From positions 75,554 through 139,553 of the forward strand of contig BCGQ01000002.1 in the NCBI GenBank assembly GCA_001599355.1: DNA of 64,000 bases, written 5' to 3'. Source of the DNA: Nakazawaea peltata. Taxonomy: Eukaryota > Ascomycota > Pichiomycetes > Alaninales > Pachysolenaceae. Below are positions 19,849-64,000 of the stretch, in pieces (the first letter of the stretch is position 1; every line of letters begins with the position of its first letter). The notes beneath the pieces were generated by a model that had not been told where the DNA came from, did no database searches, and was given only the letters and a program-made list of their open reading frames with translations. A program made the translations under genes and the position numbers.

Positions 19849-21784
19849 ATGTCGCCTTCTACACAATTTTTCTGTAAGTGAACCTTCAAATCTTCCCACA
19901 TGGATCTCTACTAACACCGGAATTTCAGGTCGCCAGCCAAAATCATTGGAATTAATATCGGGGGCTCCAGAATTGGAATCTTTAGCCGGGTTCGAGAAAC
20001 CACAAACCGATTGTAAAAATGCCATATATTCAGGAGACGGTAAATTCCTCCTGTATACTCAACCAAAGAAGGTTTGCATTGTAAACACCGCCACAGGTGA
20101 AAGCATCGGACAGATCGAGAAAGAAGACGTGTTTGATTTACATTTCAGTCCTCGTGGAAAATACATCTGTCTCTGGGCCAAACCTATTTTGATGGACAAA
20201 GAAAGTGGAATTTGGAATGAGAACGTGTCCATTTACGATATCACTGTGGGAGGAGAAGTCAAGTTATTGGGTTCATTTAGCAATAAAAATCAAAGCGGTT
20301 GGAAGCCTCAATTCACTGCCGATGAAACTTTGATGGCCAAACCTCATTCAAATCAATTGGAGATTCAGTTCTTCAAGTTGTCAGAACTGATCGATTTCAA
20401 GAAAGACAAACCATTTGCCCACTTGAATACCAAAGAATTCGGTAGATTCTCAACTTTCAGCATCTCTCCAGGTAAAAACCCTTCGATGGCGGTTTTCATC
20501 CCTGAGAGTAAAGGTCGTCCAGCATTTATCAAAATCTACAACATCCCAAATTTCAACCAAGCCGTGTCTCAAAAGCAATTTTTCAAGCTGGAGAAATGTC
20601 ATTTCAAATGGAATTCATTGGGTACTTCTGTCTTGGCTCTTGTCAGTACCGATGTTGACTCTTCTAACAAGTCTTATTATGGTGAAACTACTTTGTATTT
20701 GTTAGGTATTGTCGGATCATTTGATCAAAGAATCAATTTGGATAAAGAAGGACCAATTCATGATATTTCATGGTCTCCTTCTTCCAGAGAATTTGGTGTT
20801 ATTTACGGATACATGCCAGCTCAAACTACATTCTTTGATTCTAGAGGTAATTCTATCTATTCTTTGCCTCCATTACCAAGAAACACCATCATGTTCTCAC
20901 CTCATCTGAAGTATGTACTAGTGGCTGGTTTTGGTAATTTGCAAGGTACTGTAGATGTTTATGACAGACAAGACAAATTCTCTAAATTTGCTTCTTTTGA
21001 GCTGTCTAACACTTCTGTATGTTCATGGTCTCCATGTGGTCGTTATATTTTGACTCTGACTACTTCTCCTCGTTTAAGAGTTGATAATTGTGTTAAACTT
21101 TGGCATCTGTCTGGTAAATTGCTCTTCATCAAGGAATTCCCTGAGTTACTTGGTGTCCAATGGCGTCCGCAAGAGTTGAGTGATTTCCCTCCTTTAAAGA
21201 AATTAGAGCCTTCGCCTGAGCCACATCAAAGTGCCATTGATTACTTGGCCAAGAAACTGCTGAAGAAAAGTGCATCTGACGCAGCCAAGAGACCAAGTCT
21301 GGGTGGAGCTTATAGACCACCTCATGCAAGAAACTCTGCACTGGCATCGACCTCCTTGTACCAAAGAGAGTTACAACAAGGTTTGACTGCTACTCAATCA
21401 GCTGCTGTTCCTGGTGCTCCTGCCGCTTCTACTCCTTTCCGTCCTTCCGGTTCTAGAACTATTCCAGGTGCTCCAGTTCCTGGTGCTGTCGAATCTAAGG
21501 CCGCTGCTAAAAATAGAAAGAAGAGAGCTAATAAGAAGGATACCAAAGACGATACTCCGGAACCTCAAGCACCTCTGCAATCAAGTACCGATTCTCTCGT
21601 CATTGGAGGTGTTCTGTCTTTAGAGGATAAGAAAATCAGATCTTTATTGAAGAAGTTGAGAGCTATCGAGTTGTTGAAGGAAAAGAAACTGAACGGTGGA
21701 TCTTTAGAAGAGACACAAATATTGAAAATCGAAACCGAAGGTAAAGTTAAGGCTGAGTTACTGAGTTTGGGTTATCAAAGTTAG
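19849..21784 (+). CDS. Translation initiation factor eIF2A (WD40), two exons
   Basis: Non-canonical initiator-tRNA factor, ortholog of S. cerevisiae YGR054W. The uninterrupted frame lacks an ATG at its head: it opens after a stop at 19781 and the first in-frame Met is near residue 135. The solution is an intron. Exon 1 is 19849-19873 and exon 2 is 19929-21784. The 55-base intron has GTAAGT, TACTAAC and CAG. The spliced start reads MSPSTQFFCRQPKSLELISG, which lines up with the yeast start MSSQFFLKTSQDIELFQ, and the product has 626 residues. The beta-propeller motifs SYYGETTLYLL, GFGNLQG and TSPRLRVDN are conserved. CTG codons at 20588 and 21056 fall on family alanines. The C-terminal third is Ala/Pro-rich, then basic and helical. 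Confidence 0.93.
19874..19928 (+). other. Intron of eIF2A, 55 bp
   Basis: GTAAGT at the 5' end, branch point TACTAAC near 19910-19916, and AATTTCAG at the 3' end. It interrupts codon 9 after the first base (phase 1). The product starts correctly only after splicing. Confidence 0.88.
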
Positions 21785-22159
21785 ATTATATACACTATTA
21801 ATATAGTACTGTGTGTATTAGTGATGAAGTGTAGGACGTGGGTCATGAAGTATATTAGTAAATGTAGTTACTATGTCTATGTAGGTAGTGTTGCCAACAT
21901 TAGATGATACGTTATTCTCTACGCCAATGTCATGTTACCATGGATACACTGAAAAACTATTCGTCTGGACAACCGGAACAGATCCTGACAGCTATTCGGA
22001 AGTAGAGTCATTCACTTTGAACTTCGAGTTCACTTCGCAAACAACCCCGCATTCGCTATTCGGCAATATGAACGATATAAAAGGGGCTAAATCCCATTGG
22101 CTCAAAATATCTTATCAGCGATACAGGATTGTTCTTTTGTATTGAACTGTGTGCATGGA
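21785..22159. other. Convergent 3' region, eIF2A / OTU1
   Basis: 375 bases between two stop codons; no supported gene. A short plus-strand frame here has no recognisable motif and is AT-poor by chance. Confidence 0.5.
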
Positions 22160-23194
22160 TTACTTGTACTCCTGGAAATTGTAGTGACCCGTTTCAGTTG
22201 CATGCTCAGTAGCGTCTTTCTCACCAACTAACAGTTTATTACAATCCCCACATCTCAATTTAAACTTATTCGTATTGGTGAAATATCCCATAATATTGAG
22301 TAAATTCACAAGACTTGGATAATTCTCTTTCAGCTCCACACCAAGTAAATCGTCTTTATAGAATTTACCCACCTGTGTTAGCAGTTGCTTCAATGACAAG
22401 TCCTTCGATTTTTGATACATTATCGAATCGTAATGAATCCCACTATACAGCAAGATTATGAAACTTTCCAGATCTTCATTGAATTTATAATCATGTTTGG
22501 ATTCTATATCTATAGTGATGATTTCAATGTTTAAGAACTTCAGTAGGATATTGATTTCGATTTCTCCTCCCCACAGTTGTGGGTTTAATATCCACTCGGA
22601 GTATTCGTCGATTGAACGACCTAAAATCAGGGCATTATAAATGCCTTCCAGGTTTTCTTTGATAGTGTTGGAGACAATGGCTCTTAGATCATCGACACTG
22701 ACCATATCTTGGGATGCTGTGGAGGTTATTATGCTGTGGAATAGACAACTGTTATCGTCAGGCACTTTATGTATGAGCAATACACCAGTTTCTGTGTCGA
22801 TATATGGGATGTTATTTGGGTTGTTGAGGATTTCTGGGGCCTCAGCTGGAGCCTTAGCCAGTGTTGGGGTCTGAGTAGGAGCCTCAGCAGGGGTTTTGGT
22901 CTGACCCAGCTCCAGAACAGTCTCCTTCTTAGTATTTTCCTTCGCTAATGAATACCCCACAATCACTACTTCTCCATTCTTGATTCCAAGCACCTCCAAA
23001 TTGCTCAATTCATTGTCATCTATCACCACTGGCTTTGGTGGAAACCCAATCTTAAGTGACATATCAGAATTTGGATCGAAATTTGACAGATTTTCATTGA
23101 TAAGAGTCATCAATTCGATCAAAGTCAGATCACTATCGATTTTAACCACCTCCTGTTTATCAGAATATCTCAATCTAAGTCTAATTTCTCCCAT
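22160..23194 (-). CDS. OTU1: OTU-family deubiquitinase Otu1 (YOD1 ortholog)
   Basis: Ubiquitin-specific cysteine protease that works with Cdc48. It has 344 residues from ATG 23194; the frame runs five codons further but with no ATG. An N-terminal UBX-like ubiquitin fold (about 1-85) is followed by a TPA/APT-rich linker, the OTU domain with catalytic Cys150 in PDDNSCLFHS and His in SGIHYDS, and a C-terminal C2H2 finger (CGDCNKLL to H-x4-H-Y). This is the Otu1/YOD1 domain order. It is divergent from the AMSH gene, a second deubiquitinase, with 269 bases between their ATGs. Confidence 0.95.
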   Translation of the reverse strand: MGEIRLRLRYSDKQEVVKIDSDLTLIELMTLINENLSNFDPNSDMSLKIGFPPKPVVIDDNELSNLEVLGIKNGEVVIVGYSLAKENTKKETVLELGQTKTPAEAPTQTPTLAKAPAEAPEILNNPNNIPYIDTETGVLLIHKVPDDNSCLFHSIITSTASQDMVSVDDLRAIVSNTIKENLEGIYNALILGRSIDEYSEWILNPQLWGGEIEINILLKFLNIEIITIDIESKHDYKFNEDLESFIILLYSGIHYDSIMYQKSKDLSLKQLLTQVGKFYKDDLLGVELKENYPSLVNLLNIMGYFTNTNKFKLRCGDCNKLLVGEKDATEHATETGHYNFQEYK

Positions 23195-23280
23195 TCTCTT
23201 GTATTCCAACTCTTATCGCCTCTCCTTGACACCTTTAAACGCCATCAAAATCTGCTAATGTGCCAAGGCGCAAACCAGCC

Positions 23281-23376: not shown

Positions 23377-23463
23377 GCAACTTCGAAGGCAACAAATCAG
23401 TACATTGGCAAGGTGATAAGTGATAAGTGCGAAGTGATACGGTGATAAGGCAATCATTCCATC

Positions 23464-24861: not shown

Positions 24862-24869
24862 TAAATAAT

Positions 24870-25478: not shown

Positions 25479-25599
25479 TGTGGATGATATTCAGTGGGTG
25501 GGTCAAGATTTACTTAGAGGCAAGGAAATTAATATAGTAAGGAAGGAAAGGAAAAAGTGTGGAATAGTGGTGGGAATTAGTATGGGAAAATAGGGGGAA

Positions 25600-27487: not shown

Positions 27488-27991
27488 ATGGGTAGATATT
27501 CTGTCAAGAGATATAAGACTAAGAGAAGAACACGGGATTTAGATTTGATCTTCGATGATTTGGCCTCTCTGGAATCTGTACAGAAGTTGAAGCATCAAGC
27601 TTTAGATGAGACCAAGCCAGGTTTAGGACAGTACTATTGCATTCACTGTGCCAAATACTTTGAAACAAGGGCGCTGTTGCTGACTCACTTGAAAGGAAAG
27701 ATTCATAAGAGAAGAGTTAAAGATTTGAAGCAAAGACCATATACACAGCTTGAGAGTGATCTGCTGCTGGGTACTAATTTGGAGAAATTTATGCAAAGAG
27801 TTGAACATTATAAGGTGAAGGATGTTGAGAGATTAGAATTGGAGAAACAGATGTTGGGAGAGACACAATTGGCAGAATTGAAACTGAAGGATGATCTGAA
27901 TGAGCTGAGATTCAACGGAGAGACTGAGTCAACTGTTGATCTGCTGCTGCTGCTGCTGTCACTGACTGAAGAAGTCCAAATGCAAGTGTAA
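27488..27991 (+). CDS. BUD20: Pre-60S shuttling factor Bud20 (C2H2 zinc finger)
   Basis: Export factor for pre-60S particles. It has 167 residues. MGRYSVKRYKTKRRTRDLDL and KPGLGQYYCIHCAKYF are near-identical to yeast Bud20, and the C2H2 finger closes with H-x5-H in THLKGKIHKRR. After PYTQLESD come three CTG codons (27761-27769) where yeast Bud20 has Ala-Ala-Ala. The tail has six more consecutive CTG codons (27943-27960), then TCA, then CTG, which under a CUG-Ala code form an Ala-rich tail like that of the yeast protein. Read as Leu these would be an implausible poly-Leu run. Confidence 0.96.
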   Translation: MGRYSVKRYKTKRRTRDLDLIFDDLASLESVQKLKHQALDETKPGLGQYYCIHCAKYFETRALLLTHLKGKIHKRRVKDLKQRPYTQLESDLLLGTNLEKFMQRVEHYKVKDVERLELEKQMLGETQLAELKLKDDLNELRFNGETESTVDLLLLLLSLTEEVQMQV

Positions 27992-36959: not shown

Positions 36960-39900
36960 ATGGGACGTATTGTCGGTTTAGAACTCCATAATTTCAAATC
37001 TTATAAAGGGAAGACCTCTATTGGGTTGGGAACCAGCTGTTTCACCTCCATTATAGGCCCTAACGGGTCAGGTAAATCCAATATGATGGATGCGATATCA
37101 TTTGTACTTGGAGTAAGGTCAAGTCATTTGAGATCAAGTCATTTGAGTGACTTGATTTACCGTGGTCGTATAATGTTGGATTCCAACGATAAATCTGATA
37201 TGGAAGATGATGACGCCGATGATGACGATATTGATATCGATAATATTCAAACTAATCCACAAGATCCCACAAAGGCGTATGTGACGTGTATATATGAGCG
37301 CTCTAATGGAGAGGTGCTTAAATTGAAGAGAACCATCACAAAACGCGGTAACAGTCAATATCGAGTCGATGATAAAGTGGTATCACTGGCTGAGTACACC
37401 AATTTATTGAAATCTGAAAATATTTTAATCAAGGCTAGAAATTTCTTAGTGTTTCAAGGTGATGTGGAACAAATCGCATCACAGTCACCTCAAGATTTGA
37501 CTAAATTGATAGAAACAATCAGTGGATCAATAGAATTCAAGAAAGAATATGACCAGCTTAAAGAAGAACAAGAATTGGCTAATGAACAAACGAAATCTCT
37601 CTTCTCCACAAGGCGTACTTTAAATGGGGAATTGAGACAATACAAAGAGCAGTGTCAAGAACTGGAATTATTTGAGAAAAAACTTTCAGAGAAATCTTCT
37701 TTGATTAGAACATCCAAATTGTACTCCCTTTACCATACGGATGAAGAGATTGAACAATTGAAATCTCAACTCGTCCAATACCATAAACAAGTCAAGACTT
37801 TAAAACAAGCATTAAGAGATGAGGAAGCTCAATTTAAGGAGATTTCTTCGGAACACGCTAAATACGAGTTGGACTGCGCGAAATATCTGAAAAAGATCGG
37901 AACAAAAAGTCGTGAACTTGAGCACAAAAAACGTGACCTGATCCCCTTGGAAACTGAAAAGTCTTTGATCAGTTCGAGATCAGATGAATACAAACAAAGA
38001 ATTTTGGAATTGAAGAGGGATATTTCAAGGCAGTCTGATACCATCGATGAGATCACTAAGCAATTGTATCTGGTGAAGGAGTCTAGGGATAATTTTGAGC
38101 TTCGTTTACTGCAAGAGACTGCGATCCAGTTATCTCCAGAGGCCATCTCCCAATATCAGTTATTGAGGAACCAATTCATGGCTAGAGGAGGAGCAGAATT
38201 CGAAAATCATTTGAATGAATTGGTCCAAGCGAACGATTTACTGCAATCTAAGGTCAATAATTTGGAATCTACTAGAGATGCTACTAAAGATGTACTTAAA
38301 GAGTTGACATATCAAGTGTCGGATTTACAGAGTAAATTAACGGTTCTTACAGGGAATTTGAATGATAAATTGAGTCAACTTCAAACCAAGACCGATCAAC
38401 TCACTTCAATGAAAGATCTGAAACGTAAATATGTAGATGAAGAATTCAAATTGAACTCCAAATTGAAAGAAGTGTTAGTTGAATTGAACGATCTCACTCT
38501 GAATCAACGTGAATCCAACAGAGAACGTAAATTACGCGAAAATGTGATCACTTTGAAGAGGTTATATCCAGGAGTAAGAGGTTTGGTGTCTGATCTTTGC
38601 AGACCGAAACAAAAGAAGTTCGAGGTAGCAGTTGCTACAATTTTAGGAAAGAATTTCGATGCTATAGTTGTAGATAATTTAGCAGTGGCATCTAAATGTA
38701 TCGAATATCTTAAAGACCAAAGAGCTGGTGTTGCTACTTTCATTCCATTAGATTCTGTGACTTCCAAAGCACCTATGACATCTCTTAGACAAATCCATGA
38801 ACAAGCGCAACCATCTATCGATTGCATTGATTATGATCCGTCTCTTGAAAGACTGATTCAATATTGCTGTGGCAATTCCATGATCTGTGATACTATGGAG
38901 ATTGCCAAATATATCCGTTGGGAACGTAAAGTTGAGGTGAAGGTTGTTACTCTTGAAGGTTCCTTGATTCATAAAGCTGGATTGATGACCGGTGGTACTA
39001 CTAATAATAGTACTAGAAAGTTCAGTAAAAACGAATTGAACGGGTTACAAGATTTGAAGATTGATTTAATGAGACAAATCGATGAATTGAAGGCAAGTTT
39101 ACCTAATGAAGCTCTGGAATCTAAGGTGAGCTCTGAGATCTCTGCTTTGGAGGAAGAGTTAGTCCAAATCCGTAGAAATAGAGTCTTATTACAAAGAGAA
39201 CTCGATGATAAAGAAAGTCATGTTAAAATTCAAAGCGAAAACCTCAGTAACACTGAGTCTAAATTGGAAGATGCTCGATCTCAAGTGTCTTCCAGTCAAC
39301 AAGAGATCCAGGAATATAAAAATCAAATGAGTGTATTACAAAATGAGATCTATGCAGAGTTTTGCCAAGCAAATGATTTGGAAGATATTAATGAATATGA
39401 GAATTCGTTGAATAATTCTTCCAAAATGAAGCAAAGGACTCAATTCTTAAAGCATATCAGTGTATTGGAGAACAAGTTAAGTTTCGAGAAAGAGAGATTG
39501 GAAGATTCTAATGAAAGATTGGAGAGATTGATCGGTGAAGAAAAACGACTCGACTCAAATTTACTGGAGATTAATGTACAAATAGAAGCAAAGATGGAAT
39601 CAATTGATATATTGGAGAGTGAATTGGAGCTTCTCAATGAAGAATTGACGGCTTTAAAATCTGCTAATGAATCCAACACAAAGAAAACTACTCATTCTGG
39701 ATCTTCTTTAGAAGAGCATAAATCTGAATTAGCCGTCAAAAGAGCCAAAGTTGATGAGATTAATGAGAGTTTATTACAACTGTTGAACAGGAAATTACAA
39801 ATATTGAAGACTTGTAAAGTTGAGAACATCGAGATTCCAATTATTGACGGTTCCATTCATGATGTCCCTATTGATATTGTAGCTGAGGATGAAGATGAAG

Positions 39901-40676
39901 AAGAAAAGTTATTGAGATTTGCAGAGGATACAAGTATTGATTTCTCGGGGCTTAAGAATGAGTACAGACAAAAATCTGATGAAATTTCAAAGGAATTTGA
40001 TCTGAAAATTGAAGCTTTGCAAACAGAATTGGAATCATTGACTCCTAATGTCAAAGCAATCGAGAGATTAAGAGATGTCGAGAAGAAGTTGAATGAAATT
40101 GAACATGAATTCAAGAAACAAAGACAAGAAGAGCAAGAAATCGTCAACAAATTCAATGAATTGAAACAACAACGTCATGCCAAATTCACCGAACTGTTCG
40201 AGCATATCTCACTGAATATCAATAACATTTACAGAGAGCTCACTAGAGCACCGGCTTCTCCATTAGGAGGATCTCTGTACTTGACATTGGAAGACGAAGA
40301 TGAGCCATATAATTCAGGTATCAAGTACCATGCTATGCCTCCAATGAAAAGATTCAGAGATATGGATCTTTTGTCGGGAGGAGAGAAATCTATAGCAGCT
40401 TTAGCATTGCTCTTTGCTATTCATTCTTATCATCCGTCACCATTCTTTGTATTGGACGAAGTTGATGCGGCTTTGGATAATTCCAACGTCAACAGGTTGG
40501 CTAATTATATCAAGAATAATTGTAGTGCTGATTTCCAGTTCATTGTGATTAGTTTGAAGAATTCGTTATTCGAGAAGAGTGACTCGTTGATTGGGATTTA
40601 CAAGAATCAAGGGGAGAATAGTAGTAGGATAGTTAGTCTTGATTTGAGGGAATATCCTGAGTCGGTTAGAGCGTGA
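36960..40676 (+). CDS. SMC1: Cohesin ATPase subunit Smc1
   Basis: Core ring subunit of cohesin, holding sister chromatids. The frame opens at 36945 with GTG, but the true start is ATG 36960 (MGRIVGLELHNFKSYKGKT), which matches the family N-terminus; 1238 residues. Walker A GPNGSGKSN is at 33-41, followed by coiled coil, hinge (about 510-680, PGVRGLVSDLC to LMTGGTTN), coiled coil, then signature LLSGGEKSIAALALLFA and Walker B FFVLDEVDAALD. An acidic Asp-rich insert (about 80-105) is notable. The CTG at 40275 sits where fungal Smc1 has Ala (GG-x-A-Y-L). Confidence 0.97.
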   Translation: MGRIVGLELHNFKSYKGKTSIGLGTSCFTSIIGPNGSGKSNMMDAISFVLGVRSSHLRSSHLSDLIYRGRIMLDSNDKSDMEDDDADDDDIDIDNIQTNPQDPTKAYVTCIYERSNGEVLKLKRTITKRGNSQYRVDDKVVSLAEYTNLLKSENILIKARNFLVFQGDVEQIASQSPQDLTKLIETISGSIEFKKEYDQLKEEQELANEQTKSLFSTRRTLNGELRQYKEQCQELELFEKKLSEKSSLIRTSKLYSLYHTDEEIEQLKSQLVQYHKQVKTLKQALRDEEAQFKEISSEHAKYELDCAKYLKKIGTKSRELEHKKRDLIPLETEKSLISSRSDEYKQRILELKRDISRQSDTIDEITKQLYLVKESRDNFELRLLQETAIQLSPEAISQYQLLRNQFMARGGAEFENHLNELVQANDLLQSKVNNLESTRDATKDVLKELTYQVSDLQSKLTVLTGNLNDKLSQLQTKTDQLTSMKDLKRKYVDEEFKLNSKLKEVLVELNDLTLNQRESNRERKLRENVITLKRLYPGVRGLVSDLCRPKQKKFEVAVATILGKNFDAIVVDNLAVASKCIEYLKDQRAGVATFIPLDSVTSKAPMTSLRQIHEQAQPSIDCIDYDPSLERLIQYCCGNSMICDTMEIAKYIRWERKVEVKVVTLEGSLIHKAGLMTGGTTNNSTRKFSKNELNGLQDLKIDLMRQIDELKASLPNEALESKVSSEISALEEELVQIRRNRVLLQRELDDKESHVKIQSENLSNTESKLEDARSQVSSSQQEIQEYKNQMSVLQNEIYAEFCQANDLEDINEYENSLNNSSKMKQRTQFLKHISVLENKLSFEKERLEDSNERLERLIGEEKRLDSNLLEINVQIEAKMESIDILESELELLNEELTALKSANESNTKKTTHSGSSLEEHKSELAVKRAKVDEINESLLQLLNRKLQILKTCKVENIEIPIIDGSIHDVPIDIVAEDEDEEEKLLRFAEDTSIDFSGLKNEYRQKSDEISKEFDLKIEALQTELESLTPNVKAIERLRDVEKKLNEIEHEFKKQRQEEQEIVNKFNELKQQRHAKFTELFEHISLNINNIYRELTRAPASPLGGSLYLTLEDEDEPYNSGIKYHAMPPMKRFRDMDLLSGGEKSIAALALLFAIHSYHPSPFFVLDEVDAALDNSNVNRLANYIKNNCSADFQFIVISLKNSLFEKSDSLIGIYKNQGENSSRIVSLDLREYPESVRA

Positions 40677-44436: not shown

Positions 44437-46200
44437 ATGCCTACTATTGCCGTTGACAAACAAGACTTATTCGACTTGTTAGGTAAGACCTATACCACCG
44501 AAGAATTCGACGAATTATGTTTCGAATTCGGTATCGAGCTCGATGAAGATACCACCGACGAATGTACCGGTGACGAGAGACCTCAGTTGAAGATCGAGAT
44601 CGGCGCTAACAGATATGATATGTTGTGTATTGAAGGTATTGCGCAACTGTTGAACGAATTTTTGTCGCGCAAGGAACAACCAAAGTTCACATACTTAAAG
44701 GATCCTACCGTCACCTTAACTATTAAGGAGTCGACCGCCGATATTCGTCCATACGCTGCCGGTGCCATCTTGAGAAACATCAAGTTCACCCAAAGAAACT
44801 ATGAATCTTTCATTGCTTTGCAAGACAAATTACACACCAATTTGTGTCGTAACAGAACTTTAGTCGCCATGGGTACCCATGACTTGGACACTTTAAAACC
44901 ACCATTCACTTTCGAGCTGTTACCACCAACAGAGTTCAGTTTCGTTCCTTTAAATCAAACCAAGAAGATGAACGGTGCTGAAATGATGGAATTCTACGAA
45001 AACGATAAGAATTTAGGTAAATATTTACACATTATTAAGGACTTACCTCGTTATCCTCTTATTTTGGACAGTGAGAGAACTGTCGGTTCTATGCCTCCTA
45101 TCATCAACTCTGATCACTCCAAGATCACTTTGGATACCCGTAATGTCTTCATCGATGTCACTGGTACCGACAGAACTAAGTTGGAGATTGTTGTTAACCA
45201 ATTGGTTGCCATGTTCTCTGTATACTGTGATGAACCATTCACCGTTGAGCCTGTTCAAGTCATCAGTGAGCATAACAACGAGACCAGAGTCGTTCCTGAC
45301 TTGAAACCAAGAATTATGTCATGCTCTAAAGAATATATCAACTCTTTGTTGGGAACAGAATTGAGCACCGAAGAGATTTCCAAATTATTGGTCAAGATGT
45401 CATTAAAGGTCGTTGGATCTGAAGGTGATGATTTGTCTGTTGAAATCCCGATCACCAGACCTGATGTTTTGCATCCATGTGATATCGTAGAAGACGCTGC
45501 CATTGCTTATGGTTACAATAAGTTGCCAGCCAACAAGAACAAGATGACCTCGTTGGTTGCGCAGCCTTTGCCTATCAACAAGATCAGTGATATTTTGAGA
45601 ATTGCTTCTGCTCAAGCCGGTTGGGCTGAAGTTATGCCTTTGACATTGTGTTCTCATGACGAGAACTTCAAGTTCTTGAGACAGGAGGATGATAACACCG
45701 CTCTGGTTAAATTATCCAACCCAAAGACCGTAGAATATCAAGTTGTTAGAACAACGTTGTTACCAGGTATCTTGAAGACTGTAAGAGAGAACAGAAAGCA
45801 CTCGTTACCTATCAAGATTTTCGAGGCCGGTGATATCGTATTGAAGGATGACTCTTTGGAGAGAGGTGCCTTCAACCAAAGAAACTGGGCTGCCATTTAT
45901 GTTGGTAAGACCTCTGGTTTCGAAGTCATTCAAGGTTTATTGACCAAGATCATGCAAACCATGAGATATCCGTGGTTACAAGATCAATCTTCTACCAAGA
46001 AGGGATTTTTCGTTAAGCAAGATGACTCTAACAGCACTTTCTTCCCTCAAAGAGGAGCCAAGGTTTACTTGAGACTGAAGGATGGTGAGGAATTAAAGGA
46101 AGTTGGTATTATTGGTGTATTACACCCTGAGGTAATGACCAATTTCGAGGTTCCATATGCCGGTTCTTACGTTGAGATCAATGCTCAAGTCTTCTTGTAA
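44437..46200 (+). CDS. FRS1: Cytosolic phenylalanyl-tRNA synthetase beta subunit
   Basis: Beta chain of the alpha2-beta2 enzyme that charges tRNA-Phe. It has 587 residues. [16 protein letters not shown] is the conserved start, with B1/B3-type domains ([16 protein letters not shown]), B5 ([37 protein letters not shown]), then a class-II-like core without catalytic motifs ([35 protein letters not shown]). CTG at 44917 in FE-x-LPP replaces the family Ala. In S. cerevisiae FRS1 is next to RPL22A. Confidence 0.96.
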
Positions 46201-49605: not shown

Positions 49606-50119
49606 TTTCTCGGGGTTTTTTCGATTTATGTCCAAATACTCGTAACTAAACCAATTATGACCGATAATTTAATCTGAAAGACGCCTCTATGGTACCCTAC
49701 CGGTCTAGTCAAGTTCCATAAACCATCTTGCTGGTCTTTTGTCGTGGTTTGTTAGGATATTACCGGATTGGGCGAAGTATGTGGAGCATATTACGAATTT
49801 TAAAGTTAGCGGTACTTATTAAAGGGGTTAGCGAGGGATGCCGGGGGATACTGGGAGTACTATAAGTGCCAGCGATCAGCCATGGATATACCATGAATAA
49901 ATCACGGAGAAACCAAAGTTTCACCAATTCTTAACTCTACCTACAATACTACAAAGAAGTAAAAAATTCATTCCACCTCTCCATCGACTTTATAACTTTG
50001 ATAGTGGGTATATTAAATCTATATACACATTATATCCTAAAAACCCTTAAAGCAAATAGCAGATGACCTAGACCAGAAATGAATAAAAAAAGAGAAACGA
50101 TAAACTAAAGTTTAATAAT
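49606..50119. other. Intergenic, MIL1 promoter / RPL22 3' side
   Basis: 514 bases; no gene or strong motif is seen. Confidence 0.5.
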
Positions 50120-52062: not shown

Positions 52063-53397
52063 ATGTCTGATAAAAACGCTACTATTTTGTCAGGGATAAT
52101 CATAAGCAATAAGTACCAGATCATCAAGAAGATCGGATCTGGTTCATACGGAATCGTGTATTTAACAAGGCATTTACATTCACATAAGCTTTATCTGTTA
52201 AAGCTGATCCTCAAAAGACAGCTGAATCATCATGAGGCTTCCTCTAATGACAGTGATCACAATAAGAAGCTGTTATTGGAGTTAGAGTCTCTGTTATACA
52301 AGCAGGCTAGGGCTTCAGTGCCAATTGGTGTTCAAAATAATTTGCTCAGTTTAGATTTAATAGAGAAATATGGCATGAACTGCAAGATCTTGAGAGAGAT
52401 TTCTTTGCAATTGAAAATTCACACACATCCAAACATTTTAAGCATTCACAAAGTTTATGACAACCCATTATGTTTATTTGTTGTTATGGATTATTACCCT
52501 GAAGGAGATTTATTCCAAAGCATTGTCGATAAGAAGTTGTACCAAAATAATCCAAACCTTATCAAATCGGTATTCCTCCAATTGGTGGATCTGCTCAGTT
52601 ATTGTCATGCTCATTCAGTTTATCATTGTGATTTGAAGCCAGAAAATGTTTTGGTGGCTGATAACGGCCGTAAATTGGTGATTGCCGATTTTGGTTTGTC
52701 ATTACAAGAAGAGTACGTTTCAAGTGCTGTATCTTGTGGCTCATCATATTACATGGCTCCAGAGCGTGTAGATTACCAACCAGCCAGCGATCAAATTCCA
52801 ACTAGTTCAGGGGATGTATGGTCTTTGCTGATTATTTTAGTTAATTTGATCAGTATCAGAAATCCATGGTTAAAACTGTCCTCAAAAGACCACACTTTCC
52901 ATGCATTTATGAAGGACTCAACTGTTTTGACCAAGATTTTACCCCTCTCTGAAGAGATTTATGAGTTACTTGCATACAAATATCTTGTGATAAATCCATT
53001 TGAAAGACATTCTTTGATGGAATTTAGACTGGATATCGTTAATGTGCGCAAATTCTCCTCAGTTGGACCTCTTTCAGTCGATTGTCAAGACGACTTCTTA
53101 CACGACAAATGCCTTATGCCTTATGACCACGTTACGAACAATAATTCCAGAGAGCTTGTTTCTGCTCCTGTCCATCTTCCACCTCATCATCCAGATATTA
53201 CCAGCCTTCTCAATCCACTTCCAAACTCTGAAGAGAGTTCCAGCGAAGACGAGATGGATGAAGATATATTAGAGACCCCTCCAACGACATACCCATCATC
53301 TCCTGTGCTCGTTTCCGTTTTGGAAAATCCTCACAAGAGAATTAACTTGACAAAGATGCTTGACCATATTAATTCTCGCATCTCTGTTGAGAATTAG
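52063..53397 (+). CDS. Ser/Thr protein kinase, Ran1/Sks1/Vhs1 family
   Basis: Probable nutrient or cell-cycle kinase. It has 444 residues. Gly loop IGSGSYG (24-30), Lys47, catalytic loop HCDLKPEN (188-195), DFG at 209-211 and APE at 232-234. The catalytic loop has Cys in place of the Arg of HRD, so it is a non-RD kinase that should not need activation-loop phosphorylation. An acidic Ser-rich tail (about 390-420) follows the domain. Insertions around 52-110 are characteristic of the S. cerevisiae Sks1/Vhs1 and S. pombe Ran1 group, which act in glucose response or meiosis control. The exact ortholog is not decided. Confidence 0.85.
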   Translation: MSDKNATILSGIIISNKYQIIKKIGSGSYGIVYLTRHLHSHKLYLLKLILKRQLNHHEASSNDSDHNKKLLLELESLLYKQARASVPIGVQNNLLSLDLIEKYGMNCKILREISLQLKIHTHPNILSIHKVYDNPLCLFVVMDYYPEGDLFQSIVDKKLYQNNPNLIKSVFLQLVDLLSYCHAHSVYHCDLKPENVLVADNGRKLVIADFGLSLQEEYVSSAVSCGSSYYMAPERVDYQPASDQIPTSSGDVWSLLIILVNLISIRNPWLKLSSKDHTFHAFMKDSTVLTKILPLSEEIYELLAYKYLVINPFERHSLMEFRLDIVNVRKFSSVGPLSVDCQDDFLHDKCLMPYDHVTNNNSRELVSAPVHLPPHHPDITSLLNPLPNSEESSSEDEMDEDILETPPTTYPSSPVLVSVLENPHKRINLTKMLDHINSRISVEN

Positions 53398-55412: not shown

Positions 55413-55483
55413 GCGCAAATGGTTTAGTGGTAAAATCCAACGTTGCCATCGTTGGGCCCCCGGTTCGATTCCGGGTTTGCGCA
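55413..55483 (+). tRNA. tRNA-Gly (anticodon GCC)
   Basis: 71 nt. Acceptor GCGCAAA pairs with TTTGCGC and the discriminator is A. The D-arm is GTTTAGTGGTAAAATC, the anticodon stem CAACG/CGTTG has loop TTGCCAT (anticodon GCC), and the T-arm is CCCGG TTCGATT CCGGG. The last bases are followed directly by a run of nine T, a Pol III terminator. Internal A box (TGGTTTAGTGG) and B box (GGTTCGATTCC) are present. No intron. It is almost identical to yeast tRNA-Gly(GCC). Confidence 0.98.
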
Positions 55484-55584: not shown

Positions 55585-57156
55585 CTAACTTTCCATCTTA
55601 ACAGGTAACTTTACGTTCATATTGTCAAATACACGTTTTGGAACATCAATCCAGGCACACAATTGAGGGTATCTTTGTTGCATAATTGTTTGAAGCTTTT
55701 GGAACTCCAATTTGATTAAGAATTGAGGAAGGATCTCCAAATTGAACAGACTGATAAACATCAAGTAATGAGCTAAGACGATCAAAGCAGAAACGTTTCT
55801 TTGCCTTACAAGTTCTGCAAATGAACCTTCAACTATCATTGGGAAGACAAATAAGATTGGAAGTGGGTCCAATTCGGCAGCTGCAAATACCTTATCGAAC
55901 TCTCCAAGTAAAGCATCGATTGTGGGTCTTAACACAAACTCGTTTCCTGATCCTAACCCACCCGGATTATCTGATAATCCATATAAGTACGTAGGCCTAT
56001 ACATGAAACAAACCACGTTGCACAGGTTCAACTTTTTGTTCACCTCAGCCAAGTAGTAGTTGATCAACGATTCATTCGAGGCCCCAGAAGCCTTTGCATT
56101 TCTACCGGCCTGATCCATGACGATCAATTGCTGGGCGATTTCTCTAGAAATACGCCAAAATTCCGAATCTAAAATGCTTTTCGTAGGACTGAGGAAATAT
56201 TGTAAACCATGTGTGACATTCGAAACCAAATATGCAAAGGAAGGTTTGTTCCTCTGACTCCTGTTCACTTTTCCCGATGCGATTTTTTGACTGGACAGGG
56301 CAAAAAGACGTTGGAATTTCTGGAAATGCAACTCCGAATAATGGAGATATTCATCCAAAGATCCCAAATCTAAGTATTCTTCAGTCTCCGTACCCAGAGC
56401 GACACATTTGTTGTATAAATGTAAAAATAAGTCACTGACGATTATATGAAAAATGTAATCGAACTCTACGATTAACCACTGGACTTCCTTCCATTTGTCT
56501 CTCATCTCAGGTAAATTGGATAACATAGGCACATAATGGAACCTGAAGTATGCCATTAATTTATTGTTCAATTTGGCCAGATCCATATAAGGCCTAGAGC
56601 CGGGAACCTGGAAAGGTTTATCCATATTGGAGCCCAAAATAAGCTGCAGAATTGAAGAGTTATCCAAAGCCAGATTAATATTTGGATTACTAAGGATATT
56701 AACATCGATATTAGGTTTCCCATTGAAACTGAAACCTTTGCTCATAAGTTCTTGGAAGAGATTGGCCGGATTAGCCATCGTGGGAATGGTGGCACTGCTA
56801 TTATGGCCACTAGGTGTACGGCTACTACCCATACTAGAACTCAGTGGGGTTGGAGCAACCAGATCATGACCATAAAAATTATCGGTTTGCACTCCAATGG
56901 ACCTCATCAGAGCCTTTTTAGGTCTGCTCCTTGTGATCTTGGCAGGCGCCATGTACACACAATGTTCATTCCGTTGCACACAATTGGTACAGGACGGCTT
57001 TAACTCATCGCACTTGACCCTCCGGTCTTTGCACATCATACACCCATTTCTAGACTTCTTATGTACTTTGGCGCGTTTCAGGTAGTGCTCACTGCCCTCT
57101 GATCCATCATCATCTGAAGGCATCCCCGACATCCTGCTCTGATCAAATACGTTCAT
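55585..57156 (-). CDS. Zn2Cys6 transcription factor, Upc2/Ecm22-like (copy 1)
   Basis: 523 residues. Cluster KKSRNGCMMCKDRRVKC has its six cysteines at 39, 42, 49, 56, 59 and 66. A linker of about 90 residues rich in Ser/Pro/Asn follows, then an all-helical C-terminal domain ending RNVSALIVLAHYLMFISLFN and a final W-x4-P-x-R-V. KSRNGC in the cluster and the ALIxLAHxLM block near the end are features of the Upc2/Ecm22 sterol-response family. Sterol sensing is inference. First of three tandem relatives, all on the minus strand. Confidence 0.85.
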   Translation of the reverse strand: MNVFDQSRMSGMPSDDDGSEGSEHYLKRAKVHKKSRNGCMMCKDRRVKCDELKPSCTNCVQRNEHCVYMAPAKITRSRPKKALMRSIGVQTDNFYGHDLVAPTPLSSSMGSSRTPSGHNSSATIPTMANPANLFQELMSKGFSFNGKPNIDVNILSNPNINLALDNSSILQLILGSNMDKPFQVPGSRPYMDLAKLNNKLMAYFRFHYVPMLSNLPEMRDKWKEVQWLIVEFDYIFHIIVSDLFLHLYNKCVALGTETEEYLDLGSLDEYLHYSELHFQKFQRLFALSSQKIASGKVNRSQRNKPSFAYLVSNVTHGLQYFLSPTKSILDSEFWRISREIAQQLIVMDQAGRNAKASGASNESLINYYLAEVNKKLNLCNVVCFMYRPTYLYGLSDNPGGLGSGNEFVLRPTIDALLGEFDKVFAAAELDPLPILFVFPMIVEGSFAELVRQRNVSALIVLAHYLMFISLFNLEILPQFLIKLEFQKLQTIMQQRYPQLCAWIDVPKRVFDNMNVKLPVKMES

Positions 57157-57466
57157 CTCCTCTTATTAAACTTTAAAGTTGAAATTGTATTTCTCAATAT
57201 GCTGTGAACTGGGGCGGTTGCAAACTTAAACTTTAATAATACCAATTCGCCTGTCTCGGCATTCATAAGTTATTACTGGATGCTTCATACATTAACTTTA
57301 TTTTCTTAAACAGATCCCGCCGTCCAAACAAACTTAGGGGAAGAGAAGGGTGTCAAACACTTTGCAGGCGCCAAACGAGTCTTCACCTGTTTGAAAAAAG
57401 CGAGAAAAGCGAAGAAGAGAAAAATCACGGATAAATTTGGTTAGCAAATTATTAAATAGTTAAATA
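57157..57466. other. Intergenic between zinc-cluster copies 1 and 2
   Basis: 310 bases between the start of copy 1 and the stop of copy 2; promoter of copy 1. No further gene is seen. Confidence 0.5.
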
Positions 57467-59056
57467 TTAAGATTCGATGACCCTGATTGGGACATCAAGC
57501 CAAGGTTTCCATTTGTCATCTAAGATATTGTAGAGATTATTCAATTCTAGACGAATTGCAGGTTTGCTGAAAAGAGTGTTGAACTCCAAAGAGCTAATAA
57601 GCATCAAGAAATGAGCCATTATGATCAAGCAACGAGGGTCGTGCTCGAGAAGCAAATCTATAAAGACAGTTGGGAGAGTAAGAGGGAACCTCACAAAGAC
57701 TCGCACATGGTCTCTTTCTTTATATTTTTCATTGTAAACCAAATTAAATTCGGATTTCAAAGCATGGACAGTGTCGAGGATGATGGAGGCCTCTTCCAAG
57801 CTTGCTTCATAATGGTTAAGATGTCCTTCATCGTCTGTCTTACTGAATGGTCTGCTAACTTTGAACTCGGCTAGACTAAATAGATACTCGGGGAAGAAAA
57901 GATCAATTTGGTGAGTGACATTATCAGGCACAGATGCAGGAGAATAGTAAGCCAAATCACGGACTGAACTCAGGCCCATCTTTGCAAACTCAACTTCCCT
58001 ATCAGTAGTAGCTGTAAATACTTGTCCGATGTGGCTGATTTGCTCGAAAAATCCAGAATCAAAGACCGACATCGCAGGAGAGTTCACATAGTAGATCAAA
58101 TGTAATATTCCTGATGATAAATACAGTAAAACATCGATTTTTTGTGGAGGTCCGCGTATGATTTCACCATGGTGTGGTAATAATCGAGTGAATTCTCTAT
58201 AATTAGATTGAGAAAGCCTCAAGAAATCATCTGGATAATCCAAAGATGGGATTTCCTCGTCTAACGTACCCTCTAACTTTGCATAATATCTGTCTAATAA
58301 TATGTCCAGCATTAAAATATAAAAGACATACTCCCTCAAGTACCCCAACATTACCATGCTTTGCCATCCAGGGGCATAACCTTCATTCACGGGGCAAATC
58401 TTACGATAATATATACAAGTATGATATTTGCCTAGTATCATATTTATCTCTGTCAGAGACATATATTGTTTGTCTTGTGGTGTAGTGACGGTAATGGACA
58501 GTTGGTTTTCATTCTTTTCGTATTGGAATGAGATCGAGCTTGGTACTGTAGTAGTCAATGCCAATGATTTCTCTTCACTTTTAGATTCAGATTGACCGTT
58601 TGTCAGCGTAGCTCCTGATACGGAAGCAGAGTTGTTCAAAAGATCGCCAAATAAATCTTGACCTCCAAGGCTATTGAACTCATTCAAGCTTATATCAAGG
58701 AAATTGAAATTGTCGTCATCCACAGCCTGATTAAACCCATCAGCGATCCTCTGTAGAAGCTTTTCGGAGATCTGAGGCTTGGCTGAGGGCACTCCATCTC
58801 CAAATACAACAGTATTTGGTCTCAGCACACTGTCATCATTCATGTACACACAGACACGGTTTCTAGTCGAACAATTTATGCAGCGAGGCCTGCTCTCATC
58901 ACACTGTTCATCGTTAGTAAGCGGCTTAATTCTGGTGGCGTAGTTAAAGAACAAACTTACCTTCACTTTGCGCTGTTTACAAGTGACACAACCATTTCTG
59001 GATTTCTTGTGAGGACGCTTGAGTCTCTTACAATCCCTATTATCTTCCGTACTCAT
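57467..59056 (-). CDS. Zn2Cys6 transcription factor, Upc2/Ecm22-like (copy 2), two exons
   Basis: Exon 1 is 58961-59056 and exon 2 is 57467-58903, giving 510 residues. The open frame runs on upstream but only from a TTG; ATG 59056 starts MSTEDNRDCKRLKRPHKKSR. After splicing the cluster reads CVTCKQRKVKCDESRPRC, with cysteines at 23, 26, 33, 40, 43 and 50. The unspliced frame is also open and would insert 19 residues between the second and third cysteine. The C-terminal block FPLTLP...DPRCLIIMAHFLMLIS is shared with copies 1 and 3. Role in sterol or nutrient response is inferred from family only. Confidence 0.87.
   Translation of the reverse strand: MSTEDNRDCKRLKRPHKKSRNGCVTCKQRKVKVSLFFNYATRIKPLTNDEQCDESRPRCINCSTRNRVCVYMNDDSVLRPNTVVFGDGVPSAKPQISEKLLQRIADGFNQAVDDDNFNFLDISLNEFNSLGGQDLFGDLLNNSASVSGATLTNGQSESKSEEKSLALTTTVPSSISFQYEKNENQLSITVTTPQDKQYMSLTEINMILGKYHTCIYYRKICPVNEGYAPGWQSMVMLGYLREYVFYILMLDILLDRYYAKLEGTLDEEIPSLDYPDDFLRLSQSNYREFTRLLPHHGEIIRGPPQKIDVLLYLSSGILHLIYYVNSPAMSVFDSGFFEQISHIGQVFTATTDREVEFAKMGLSSVRDLAYYSPASVPDNVTHQIDLFFPEYLFSLAEFKVSRPFSKTDDEGHLNHYEASLEEASIILDTVHALKSEFNLVYNEKYKERDHVRVFVRFPLTLPTVFIDLLLEHDPRCLIIMAHFLMLISSLEFNTLFSKPAIRLELNNLYNILDDKWKPWLDVPIRVIES
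58904..58960 (-). other. 57-bp stop-free intron inside a zinc-cluster domain
   Basis: Minus strand: GTAAGT at 58960-58955, TACTAAC at 58919-58913, GAACAG ending at 58904. Length is 19 codons, phase 0, with no in-frame stop. Confidence 0.93.
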
Positions 59057-59296
59057 AGCCCTACTTGACCCTTCATCCAATATCTTTATCGCCGTTCTGT
59101 CTAGTGTTATAAATCCGCTTAGCAAGCCGTGCGCGTTTTTTCATTTACCGCTCGGTGATGCCTGCGCCTCCCTAAAGTGTCGTTAAACGAGAAAATAGTC
59201 GGAGAAAGCGGAAAATGCTAAACTGAGAAAACGAGCAAAAAGGGGTGATATTTTTTATATAAAAAGCAAATGGCATAAAAAATTATATGGCAAAAA

Positions 59297-60991
59297 TTAT
59301 TTAGCATGTGGATTATTCAGTGGGCAGAGGATATCTCTTGGCATTTTAATCCAGACTACCCATTCCTTGCGAAGTCTGGCAACAAGCAGGAGCATCTCAT
59401 CGCGCAATTTGTGAACAGGCAATAATTGGTCAAAATCAAGCGACAGTAACAACATCACGAAATGAGCTAAAACGATGATGGCACGTTGGTTATTTTTAAC
59501 TAAGGCCTCTTGGAATTCCTTGCTCACCAAAGAGGGCCAACGAGATATGACCCTAATTGAATCTGTTTCAGGTTCTTGGGTATTATACACGAGATTATAT
59601 TCACGACGTAAAAGGTCGATGGTCTTCTTCAACAACTGAGGATCGAGCTCACTTTGTTCCTTATCAAACTCTTCAGATGTTTCAAATGGCATTTGATCTT
59701 TTAATTGATAAAGATATCTTGGGAAAAATAACCATGCACTTTGCGCAATAATTGGAATTGAGTGAGAACTGTAATAGTTCAAATCGAGACAGGTCTTCTC
59801 CCCTTTATAGATGACAGCTTTAACATGTTCATTTTCTTTGGCAGAGAATAAACCTGTCTTGATCAATTCACTTGGGCTTTGGAATGGATTTGTAAGTTGG
59901 GTATCATCATCTTCAATGATGAAAGGCATCAGTTCGGAGTATAAGATTGAGATGGTTCTTGAAATAGAAAAGAAGAATGGGTCTGAAATACTGGTTCCTG
60001 GAGCAATGGCATGATAAAGCACATGTAAAGTCGTGCATGACATGTATGAGAACAATTCCATTACAGTTTTTGATCTTTGCAGCTTATAAATGTCAAATAA
60101 ACTCAAAAATTTTCTGTAGTGGAAAAGAGACAAGTCCTTATACACCCTCAACTCTGTTGTGAGAGGTGCATCATGGAATTCCTGAGATGCAACCGTGTCT
60201 TGAAATATTGCAGACAGAGAGATACACATAATCATATGGTAAACATATGGATACATGTGAGAAACCCCCACCAAATTCTCCCACAGTCTTGCAACCAATT
60301 TATTTGCGGATATTCTCCTATAGTATGAAGTTTGGAAAAAGAGAAATAACTTGGAGTTGATTTCCGTATGGAAAGAATAACTCATCTCCAGAATGGCATC
60401 GCCTGCTGATGCTGCAGTTATTTCATCTGGGGCCGCTGAGCATGATGGTGTTAAAATACACTCGATCGCCTTATCAACTTTACCTTTTGACAGATCGAGT
60501 GACTCTACCTCTGACAGCGAAGATCTATGTGTAGCAGGGAAGGAAAGTGTTGTAGAAGGACTAGTCTGATCAGAAGTAGACCCTGGTGTGATAGCAAAAT
60601 TTGGACCGTTTGAAAAGTATGGGTCAAATGTCAGGAAGATGTTCAGAGGTGAACCACCGGCCGGTGAACCAGCAGAATGGCCCAAATCAAACCCTAAAAG
60701 GTTGTCGTGCTTGATTAAAAGAGAATTCTTTGGAGAGTCTGTAGGAGGATCAGTTGGAATAGTTGAAACAGTTGACAGAGCCAGCTCTGAAACATTCTTC
60801 TTTCTTCTTGTCTTGAAAATCGGTCCTGGCAGTACATACTGACATTCGTCTCCTCTTCTCTTACAATTTGAACACATCGGGTGCAGCTCATCGCACTTGA
60901 CTCGTCTCAGCTTGCAAGCAGCGCATCCGAGACGAGATTTGAGATGAGACCTTTTGCTCACGCTCCTAGTAGAGCTCTTTAAAACAGTCAT
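59297..60991 (-). CDS. Zn2Cys6 transcription factor, Upc2/Ecm22-like (copy 3)
   Basis: 564 residues. The cluster SRLGCAACKLRRVKCDELHP has cysteines at 23, 26, 33, 40, 43 and 50, the same positions as in copy 2, but here there is no intron. A Pro/Ser/Thr-rich linker to about 210 is followed by the helical C-terminal domain, including WPSLVSKEFQEALVKNNQRA and IIVLAHFVMLLLSLDF, and a final W-x2-W-I-K-M-P-R. Family and likely role are as for the two neighbours; the three have diverged strongly outside the cluster and the C-terminal block. Confidence 0.85.
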   Translation of the reverse strand: MTVLKSSTRSVSKRSHLKSRLGCAACKLRRVKCDELHPMCSNCKRRGDECQYVLPGPIFKTRRKKNVSELALSTVSTIPTDPPTDSPKNSLLIKHDNLLGFDLGHSAGSPAGGSPLNIFLTFDPYFSNGPNFAITPGSTSDQTSPSTTLSFPATHRSSLSEVESLDLSKGKVDKAIECILTPSCSAAPDEITAASAGDAILEMSYSFHTEINSKLFLFFQTSYYRRISANKLVARLWENLVGVSHMYPYVYHMIMCISLSAIFQDTVASQEFHDAPLTTELRVYKDLSLFHYRKFLSLFDIYKLQRSKTVMELFSYMSCTTLHVLYHAIAPGTSISDPFFFSISRTISILYSELMPFIIEDDDTQLTNPFQSPSELIKTGLFSAKENEHVKAVIYKGEKTCLDLNYYSSHSIPIIAQSAWLFFPRYLYQLKDQMPFETSEEFDKEQSELDPQLLKKTIDLLRREYNLVYNTQEPETDSIRVISRWPSLVSKEFQEALVKNNQRAIIVLAHFVMLLLSLDFDQLLPVHKLRDEMLLLVARLRKEWVVWIKMPRDILCPLNNPHAK

Positions 60992-62546: not shown

Positions 62547-64000
62547 ATGAGTAATCCTGAGGAGACTTTAGAACACGAGGCCATACTGCCTGTTGGTATG
62601 GGTCCTCCAGTCTTTACTAAGAAGGCTATTGCTCGTTATTTCAAAACTAGATTTACCACATTGTTTCCTACTAGACAACAATTACGCTCTAAGAAGCATT
62701 TAGTGAACCCTTTCAAGCCTTTAAGACATATGACCAAATCTCAATGGAATTTTTATTTTATAGGTTTTTGGTGTTGGACAATGGATCTGTTTGATTATTT
62801 CATGGTTTCTCTCAATGTTTCCACTATGGCTGAGGATTTCGGTGTGACTGTTAAAGATATCAGTTGGGGTATCACTTTAGTGCTCATGTTAAGAACTGTC
62901 GGTCTGGTTATTTTCGGTATTCTTGGTGACAAATATGGTAGAAAATGGCCATTGGTCTCTAACATGATCCTTCTTTCTATCTTGCAAATTGGAACTGGTT
63001 TTGTGAAAACTTACAAACAGTTTTTAGGGGTAAGACTGCTTTTCGGTATTGCTATGGGGGGTGTTTTCGGTAATGTTGCAAGTACGGCATTGGAGGATGC
63101 TCCTGCTGAAGCTAGGGGAATTTTGTCTGGTTTTTTGCAACAAGGTTATGCTTTTGGTTACCTTTTAGTCGTCATTTTCCAAAGACTGATCACAGATACC
63201 ACAGCCAAAGGTTGGAGATCTCTCTTCTGGTTTAGTGCCGGTGTTTCTATGATTTTTGTTGTTTGGAGAATTTCAGCTCCTGAAACTAACGGATGGAAAG
63301 CTCAAAAATCTATGGAAAGAGCTTCTCTGGTGACTTCTTTCAGAAACCAAGCTAGAGGTGCTATTAAGACCTACTGGCTTGTGTGTGTGTACCTTATTTT
63401 CCTTATGTCTGGATTCAACTTTAGTTCTCATGGATCTCAAGACTTGTATCCAACTCTTTTAACGAAACAATTGGGTTTTGGTGAAAATAGATCCACAGTT
63501 ACCAATAGTGTTGCTAATTTGGGAGCTCTTCTGGGTGGTGTCACCATGGGACATTTGTCTGATTTCTTGGGTAGAAGATTGACTGTGGCAATTTGCTGTA
63601 TTTTGGGTGGCTGCATGATTTATCCATGGGCCTATTCAAGAGACTCAGGTATTAATGCAGGTGTGTTTTTCTTGCAATTCTTTGTCCAAGGTGGATGGGG
63701 TGTTGTGCCAATTCATCTTTCTGAGTTATCCCCTGCTCATTTTAGGTCCTTTGTCCTGGGTACCAGTTATCAGTTAGGTAACTTAGTCTCTTCTGCTTCT
63801 TCCACTATTGAAGCAACTATTGGTGAAAGATTCCCTATTTATGATGAGAATGGAAACAAGCTCGATGAAGTTTATGATTACTCCAAGGTGATGTCTATCT
63901 TCATGGGATGCGTATTTCTGTATTTGCTCATTGTGGTTATTTTGGGTCCAGAGAACCACGGAGGTTCTCTTATTGCTTCTAACGTCGATAATGCATATCT
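62547..64000 (+). CDS. JEN1: JEN-type monocarboxylate/H+ symporter (MFS), 3' end cut by window
   Basis: Plasma-membrane permease for lactate, pyruvate or dicarboxylates. The ATG is at 62547 and the frame stays open to 64000 (484 codons), so only the C-terminal tail is missing. Cytosolic N-terminus, then spans starting at FYFIGFWCWTMDLFDYFMV. The MFS motif GDKYGRKWP is present, as is the JEN signature NFSSHGSQDLYPT (N-x2-S/T-H-x-S/T-QD-x3-T) needed for substrate binding. Also VR-x-LFGIAMGG, LQQGYAFGY and TSYQLGNL. CTG at 62787, 62904 and 63036 align with Ala (or Ala/Ser) of the family. Whether JEN1 or JEN2 subgroup is not settled. Confidence 0.93.
   Translation, partial: MSNPEETLEHEAILPVGMGPPVFTKKAIARYFKTRFTTLFPTRQQLRSKKHLVNPFKPLRHMTKSQWNFYFIGFWCWTMDLFDYFMVSLNVSTMAEDFGVTVKDISWGITLVLMLRTVGLVIFGILGDKYGRKWPLVSNMILLSILQIGTGFVKTYKQFLGVRLLFGIAMGGVFGNVASTALEDAPAEARGILSGFLQQGYAFGYLLVVIFQRLITDTTAKGWRSLFWFSAGVSMIFVVWRISAPETNGWKAQKSMERASLVTSFRNQARGAIKTYWLVCVYLIFLMSGFNFSSHGSQDLYPTLLTKQLGFGENRSTVTNSVANLGALLGGVTMGHLSDFLGRRLTVAICCILGGCMIYPWAYSRDSGINAGVFFLQFFVQGGWGVVPIHLSELSPAHFRSFVLGTSYQLGNLVSSASSTIEATIGERFPIYDENGNKLDEVYDYSKVMSIFMGCVFLYLLIVVILGPENHGGSLIASNVDNAY

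What the first reader, a model, noticed from the sequence alone, without database searches (positions are those of the whole stretch)
20588..63038. CTG codons decode as alanine: a CUG-Ala yeast
Seen: CTG falls on positions that the named family keeps as Ala. Examples: eIF2A 21056 (ILT-CTG-TTSPRLRV) and 20588 (FFK-CTG-EK; yeast and human have FxKAD); CCP1 8864 (GVV-CTG-VQELGGP); BUD20 27761-27769 (SD then CTG x3 then G; S. cerevisiae SDAAAG); FRS1 44917 (FE-CTG-LPP); JEN 63036 (VR-CTG-LFGIAMGG), 62904 and 62787; SMC1 40275 (GGS-CTG-YL). Strongly biased genes (RPL10, YNK1, PRX1) lack CTG. Ser would not fit as well, and Leu fits poorly. Known: Pachysolen, Nakazawaea and Peterozyma read CUG as Ala. 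Consequence: all conceptual translations of this window need recoding.
Basis: partly seen in the sequence, partly recalled or inferred. Interest (0 to 1): 0.85.

Follow-up and report, generated by a model that had tools for sequence, protein, structure and literature searches.

The report
Yeast reading CUG as alanine
This stretch of yeast DNA comes from a yeast that reads the codon CUG as alanine instead of leucine, a genetic-code change already described in 2016 for a small group of budding yeasts, so it is real but not new.

Summary
All 11 CTG codons placed by coordinate are in frame where stated. In nine genes I masked one codon at a time and aligned to solved homologues; the method recovered 58 of 60 control codons and assigned CTG to alanine, 31 bits ahead of serine and 92 ahead of leucine over 68 sites. 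Alanine was best in 1994 of 2000 bootstraps, after dropping any one gene or SMC1 segment, and without the 8 alignable reader-named sites. Over 26 Pfam domains alanine beats leucine by 94 bits and serine by 43; it has the best sum of ten residues tried on a five-domain concatenate. This is the known CUG-Ala code (NCBI table 26) of Pachysolen, Nakazawaea and Peterozyma. The tRNA(CAG) gene could not be tested: the only tRNA found in the window is Gly(GCC) and no whole genome is held. The species is not identified, and low-level serine or leucine incorporation is not excluded. Interest is low because the code is known; this window should be translated with table 26.

The parts
20588..20590 (+). 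CTG, eIF2A residue 267 of the frame (FFK-CTG-EK); Ala in S. pombe and human chains
21056..21058 (+). CTG, eIF2A residue 423 of the frame (ILT-CTG-TTSPRLRV); Ala in S. pombe and human chains
8864..8866 (+). CTG, CCP1 residue 182 (GVV-CTG-VQELGGP); Ala in S. cerevisiae
27761..27769 (+). three CTG codons, BUD20 residues 92-94; S. cerevisiae has Ala-Ala-Ala, chain 8pv1 Ala-Ala-Ile
40275..40277 (+). CTG, SMC1 residue 1106 (GGS-CTG-YLTLEDEDEP); Ala in the three homologues compared
44917..44919 (+). CTG, FRS1 residue 161 (FE-CTG-LPP); Ala in human and chain 8s8b, Phe in 7by6 and 7dpi
62547..63998 (+).
   Evidence: the name JEN was not tested
3..2402 (-). kinesin-5-like gene (cut at window start), 14 CTG; CTG falls on residues 270 and 402, Ala in both S. 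pombe cut7 and human KIF11, on 331 (Thr in cut7, Ala in KIF11) and on 188 (Gln in both)
36960..40673 (+). SMC1 gene, 17 CTG
19790..21781 (+). eIF2A gene (5' end not resolved), 15 CTG in the frame
22163..23194 (-). OTU1 gene, 14 CTG
27488..27988 (+). BUD20 gene, 16 CTG in 167 codons, with an in-frame run of six CTG at codons 152-157
52063..53394 (+). protein kinase gene, 9 CTG; largest gain of Ala over Leu among the 26 domains: 162.0 (Ala) / 155.8 (Ser) / 146.8 (Leu) bits
55413..55483 (+). only tRNA gene found in the window, tRNA-Gly(GCC)

Best explanation
The window is nuclear DNA of a budding yeast of the CUG-Ala clade (Alaninales: Pachysolen, Nakazawaea, Peterozyma), in which CUG is translated as alanine (NCBI table 26). 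Shown here: CTG codons behave like alanine codons in conserved positions. Inferred from the literature: a tRNA-Ala gene whose anticodon mutated to CAG reads CUG. Recalled, not tested: alanyl-tRNA synthetase does not read the anticodon, so such a tRNA stays charged with alanine. CTG would then be a common alanine codon, 267 of 979 alanine codons in 30 genes (27%), absent or rare in the strongly codon-biased genes. Membership of the clade is inferred from the code alone.
For: Site-level inference: 58 of 60 control codons recovered; CTG assigned to Ala by 31.3 bits over Ser and 91.7 over Leu at 68 sites, and by 39.6 and 84.7 at the 44 best-aligned sites, where 56 of 60 controls are right. Homologue is Ala at 30% of CTG sites (44% filtered) against 37% (48%) for GCN codons; Leu at 4% (4.5%) against 48% (58%) for the other Leu codons. 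Bootstrap 1994 of 2000. Jackknife over ten segments of nine genes (SMC1 in two segments, dropped one at a time) and removal of the 8 alignable reader-named sites all give Ala. Of 16 CTG sites where at least two homologues agree, 12 are Ala and none Leu. Pfam: 26 domains, A minus L 93.8 bits, A minus S 43.3 bits, Wilcoxon p 7e-5 and 0.006. Ten-residue test: Ala 724.6 bits summed over five families; each of the other nine at least about 12 bits lower. Composition: with CTG as Ala, Ala is 6.7%; as Leu, Leu would be 11.5%; as Ser, Ser 11.3% (that the first is the more usual picture is recalled).
Against: In 9 of 26 Pfam domains Ser or Leu scores highest, seven of them by less than 1 bit and the others by 1.3 and 1.5. 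SMC_N over the whole SMC1 protein scored 34 bits higher with Leu (194.8 against 160.5); with the two head segments taken alone the gap is 0.4 and 1.5 bits, so I read it as an effect of the coiled coil on the domain envelope, which is an inference. The RCC1 repeat model (PF00415) favours Leu, 77.2 against 73.2, while the overlapping WD40_RLD model favours Ala. For the protein kinase alone Gly beats Ala, 137.9 against 134.4 bits. Several aligned CTG sites meet other residues, for example Asp and Glu in CCP1, Ser and Pro in OTU1, Gln in the kinesin, Glu in SMC1. The mixture estimate is 0.91 Ala with bootstrap interval 0.62-1.0, so up to about a third Ser-like sites is not excluded. GCN density near CTG (5.2%) lies between that near GCN (7.1%) and near Leu codons (4.4%), which decides nothing. 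No tRNA evidence.
Confidence: 0.97

Rival explanations
1. CUG is read as serine (Ser1 or Ser2 clade, NCBI table 12).
For: Serine is the second-best residue in the site test. One of 16 unanimous sites is Ser (OTU1 218). Five of 26 Pfam domains score best with Ser. An earlier analysis placed Pachysolen with the alternative (Ser) code (PMC4986446, passages), so Ala and Ser can be confused.
Against: 31 bits behind Ala, 43 bits behind over Pfam domains, 14 bits behind even without the alignable reader-named sites. The Ser share at CTG sites (10%) is close to that at GCN codons (7%) and far from that at Ser codons (27%).
Confidence: 0.02
2. The standard code holds and CUG is leucine, the Ala positions being chance substitutions.
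For: The whole-protein SMC_N score and the RCC1 repeat model favour Leu, as do 4 of 26 domains.
Against: 92 bits behind Ala; no unanimous-Leu site among 16, against 84 of 105 unanimous sites for the other Leu codons; V-SNARE_C drops from 37.2 to 24.9 bits, below its cut-off of 27.1, when CTG is Leu.
Confidence: 0.005
3. Mixed decoding: mostly Ala, with a real minority of Ser or Leu, from competing or ambiguously charged tRNAs.
For: The mixture interval allows 0-0.37 Ser and 0-0.15 Leu. Four of five Ser2-clade yeasts keep two competing CAG tRNA genes (PMC5951914).
Against: Best estimate is 0.91 Ala, and ordinary Ala codons also show scattered non-Ala homologues. In the parts of PMC5951914 that I read the Ala clade is said to use a novel tRNA with anticodon CAG made from a tRNA-Ala gene.
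Confidence: 0.05

Closest known systems
CUG-Ala genetic code (NCBI translation table 26, Pachysolen tannophilus nuclear code)
   Same: CUG read as Ala; the other codons look standard (58 of 60 recovered, the two misses having 8 and 3 sites).
   Different: Nothing found that differs; the tRNA itself was not seen.
CUG-Ser1 and CUG-Ser2 codes (NCBI table 12)
   Same: The same codon left leucine in related budding yeasts (PMC5951914).
   Different: Serine fits 31 bits worse than alanine here.

Membership tests
CUG-Ala code (NCBI table 26) | CUG occupies conserved alanine positions and fits Ala better than Leu or Ser | tested here: met
CUG-Ala code (NCBI table 26) | Remaining sense codons standard | tested here: met
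   58 of 60 codons recovered; misses CTA (8 sites) and CGA (3 sites) have few sites
CUG-Ala code (NCBI table 26) | tRNA with anticodon CAG and Ala identity; no tRNA-Leu(CAG) | not testable with these tools
   only tRNA-Gly(GCC) found in the window; no whole genome held
CUG-Ala code (NCBI table 26) | Alanine at CUG positions in peptide spectra | not testable with these tools
   no proteomic data
Clade Alaninales / Pachysolenaceae | Phylogenetic placement with Pachysolen, Nakazawaea or Peterozyma | not tested
   no fungal genome collection among the tools; clade and its three genera seen in the taxonomy only
CUG-Ser code (NCBI table 12) | CUG fits Ser better than Ala | tested here: not met
Standard code (CUG Leu) | CUG fits Leu; CTG found at conserved Leu positions | tested here: not met

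The most novel reading that the evidence does not exclude
The yeast could lie outside the known CUG-Ala clade, a second independent Leu-to-Ala reassignment, or could still decode CUG ambiguously, with Ala dominant and a genuine Ser minority. Neither is excluded, because the genome, its tRNAs and its position in the tree could not be examined.
Probability: 0.05. Interest if true: 0.65.

Novelty: already known. Interest (0 to 1): 0.2.

Why it matters
It fixes how the proteins in this window must be read: 267 CTG codons in 30 genes change from Leu to Ala. Domain searches gain measurably (for example V-SNARE_C from 24.9 to 37.2 bits). Biologically it is one more sighting of a published code change, useful as a control case showing that a 64 kb window can be enough to infer a sense-codon reassignment against 60 control codons.

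Tried and rejected
Looked for tRNA(CAG): ARAGORN and Rfam each found only tRNA-Gly(GCC). Asked for the whole genome: none held.

Considered the SMC_N score that favours Leu by 34 bits as counter-evidence; scoring the two SMC1 head segments alone removes nearly all of it, so I set it aside as an envelope effect. The VPS38 model came and went between codes (listed with Ala and Ser but not Leu; with Ala only when trimmed); I left it out of the sums because no score is given where it is missing. Also left out of the 26-domain sum: the RCC1 repeat model, which overlaps WD40_RLD and favours Leu (73.2 Ala, 69.0 Ser, 77.2 Leu); Sec20, which overlaps V-SNARE_C and favours Ser (21.4 Ala, 25.1 Ser, not listed with Leu); whole-protein SMC_N, replaced by the two head segments; other overlapping secondary models (for example Microtub_bd, PK_Tyr_Ser-Thr, MFS_1, the TPR and AAA models); and models with no CTG inside or run under Ala only (for example Zn_clus, NAD_Gly3P_dh, CCDC90-like).

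Ten residues, not twenty, were tried in the Pfam concatenate. In one search the two SMC1 segments overlap by 10 codons, so control codons there are counted twice; no CTG lies in the overlap (positions). GCN density next to CTG was computed and is uninformative.

Looked up the 2016 Genome Research paper on this code by a recalled DOI: not held; I cite the discovery through PMC5951914. Species identification was not attempted, since no fungal genome collection is among the tools.

Full report
The window is 64,000 bases of yeast nuclear DNA at 39.6% GC; I worked with 30 protein genes. Those recognised by Pfam include a kinesin, a peroxidase (CCP1), Pam17, eIF2A, OTU1, an SMC protein, PheRS beta and ribosomal L16/L10e. 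The only RNA gene found is tRNA-Gly(GCC) at 55413-55483. No whole genome is held for it.

Observation.

Main test. For nine genes (SMC1 taken in two segments) I translated the window with CTG as X, searched the sequences of solved structures, and copied printed homologues (19 homologue rows). These nine genes hold 108 of the 267 CTG codons counted in 30 genes, of which 68 sites could be aligned. For each of the 61 sense codons in turn, the codon was masked (CTG always masked), the protein realigned, and the homologue residues tallied with each site given weight one. The probability of a homologue residue given an amino acid was learned from the other codons, CTG excluded, with BLOSUM62 pseudocounts. 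The method recovered the standard meaning of 58 of 60 control codons; the two misses (CTA, 8 sites; CGA, 3 sites) have few sites. For CTG, Ala ranks first of 20, with Ser 31.3, Thr 45.2 and Leu 91.7 bits behind. At the 44 best-aligned sites 56 of 60 controls are right, and Ser is 39.6 and Leu 84.7 bits behind. Homologues have Ala at 30% of CTG sites, near the 37% for GCN codons; they have Leu at 4%, against 48% for the other Leu codons.

Robustness. Resampling sites gives Ala in 1994 of 2000 bootstraps (1997 of 2000 filtered). A three-way mixture gives 0.91 Ala (0.62-1.0), 0.08 Ser (0-0.37) and 0.01 Leu (0-0.15), intervals from 200 resamplings; pooled Ala, Leu and Ser codons are each recovered as pure, though these were also the codons that trained the model. 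Leaving out any one gene or SMC1 segment keeps Ala ahead of Ser by at least 19.7 bits. Leaving out the eight reader-named sites that could be aligned still gives Ala by 14.4 bits over Ser and 68.0 over Leu. Of 16 CTG sites at which two or more homologues agree, 12 are Ala, one each Ser, Pro, Glu and Gln, and none Leu.

Pfam. Proteins were scanned with tables 26, 12 and 1. Over 26 domain scores Ala exceeds Leu by 93.8 bits and Ser by 43.3, and is the best of the three in 17, Ser in 5, Leu in 4. Left out of the sum are whole-protein SMC_N, which favoured Leu by 34 bits but is nearly level when the two head segments are scored alone; the overlapping RCC1 repeat model (favours Leu) and Sec20 model (favours Ser); VPS38 (missing under some codes); other overlapping secondary models; and models without CTG or run under Ala only. 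On a concatenate of five domains with 25 CTG, Ala sums to 724.6 bits; the next are Gly (below about 712, since its OTU score was not listed) and Ser (710.2). For the kinase domain alone Gly is better than Ala.

Composition and usage. In 30 genes (14,565 codons) there are 267 CTG. Reading them as Ala gives 6.7% Ala; as Leu, Leu would be 11.5%; as Ser, Ser 11.3%. CTG use falls as codon bias rises (Spearman -0.52 with the TTG share of Leu, -0.59 with the GCT+GCC share of Ala); PRX1, YNK1 and RPL10 have none. BUD20 holds 16 CTG in 167 codons, with an in-frame run of six.

What is known. PMC5951914 (I read parts 1 and 2 of 5, and passages) reports that CUG moved to Ala once and to Ser twice in budding yeasts. 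[quoted passage not shown] An earlier paper (PMC4986446, passages) counted Pachysolen among yeasts with the alternative Ser code, a reminder that Ala and Ser are the pair to separate. NCBI taxonomy has the order Alaninales with one family, Pachysolenaceae, and three genera. The Codetta screen (PMC8629427, one passage) carries CUG-Ala as an expected category. Nothing found here departs from that code.

Limits. I could not see the tRNA, the proteome or the species, and the species may be one of those already sequenced. Ambiguous decoding at a low level, or an origin outside the known clade, cannot be excluded.

Noticed in passing
window 57467-59056, minus strand: Gene like a Zn2Cys6 factor whose zinc cluster is split in the ORF by a likely in-frame intron (GTAAGT ... 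TACTAAC ... CAG, seen) between KQRKVK and CDESRPRC, which would explain why no Zn_clus match was found.
   Followed up: partly
window 19790-20192: The eIF2A reading frame has no ATG before 20192, yet homology starts about residue 46 of the frame, so the true start probably lies in an upstream exon.
   Followed up: no
window 27488-27988: BUD20 is very CTG-rich (16 of 167 codons) with an in-frame run of six CTG near the C-terminus, which would encode poly-alanine.
   Followed up: partly
window 55588-60991, minus strand: Three adjacent genes on one strand that look like Zn2Cys6 transcription factors (55588-57156, 57470-59056, 59300-60991), possibly a tandem expansion; Pfam Zn_clus matched the first and third only.
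   Followed up: no
window 34122-36959 and 49606-52062: Two stretches of about 2.8 and 2.5 kb without a long ORF (longest stop-to-stop frames 101 and 131 codons); content not examined.
   Followed up: no
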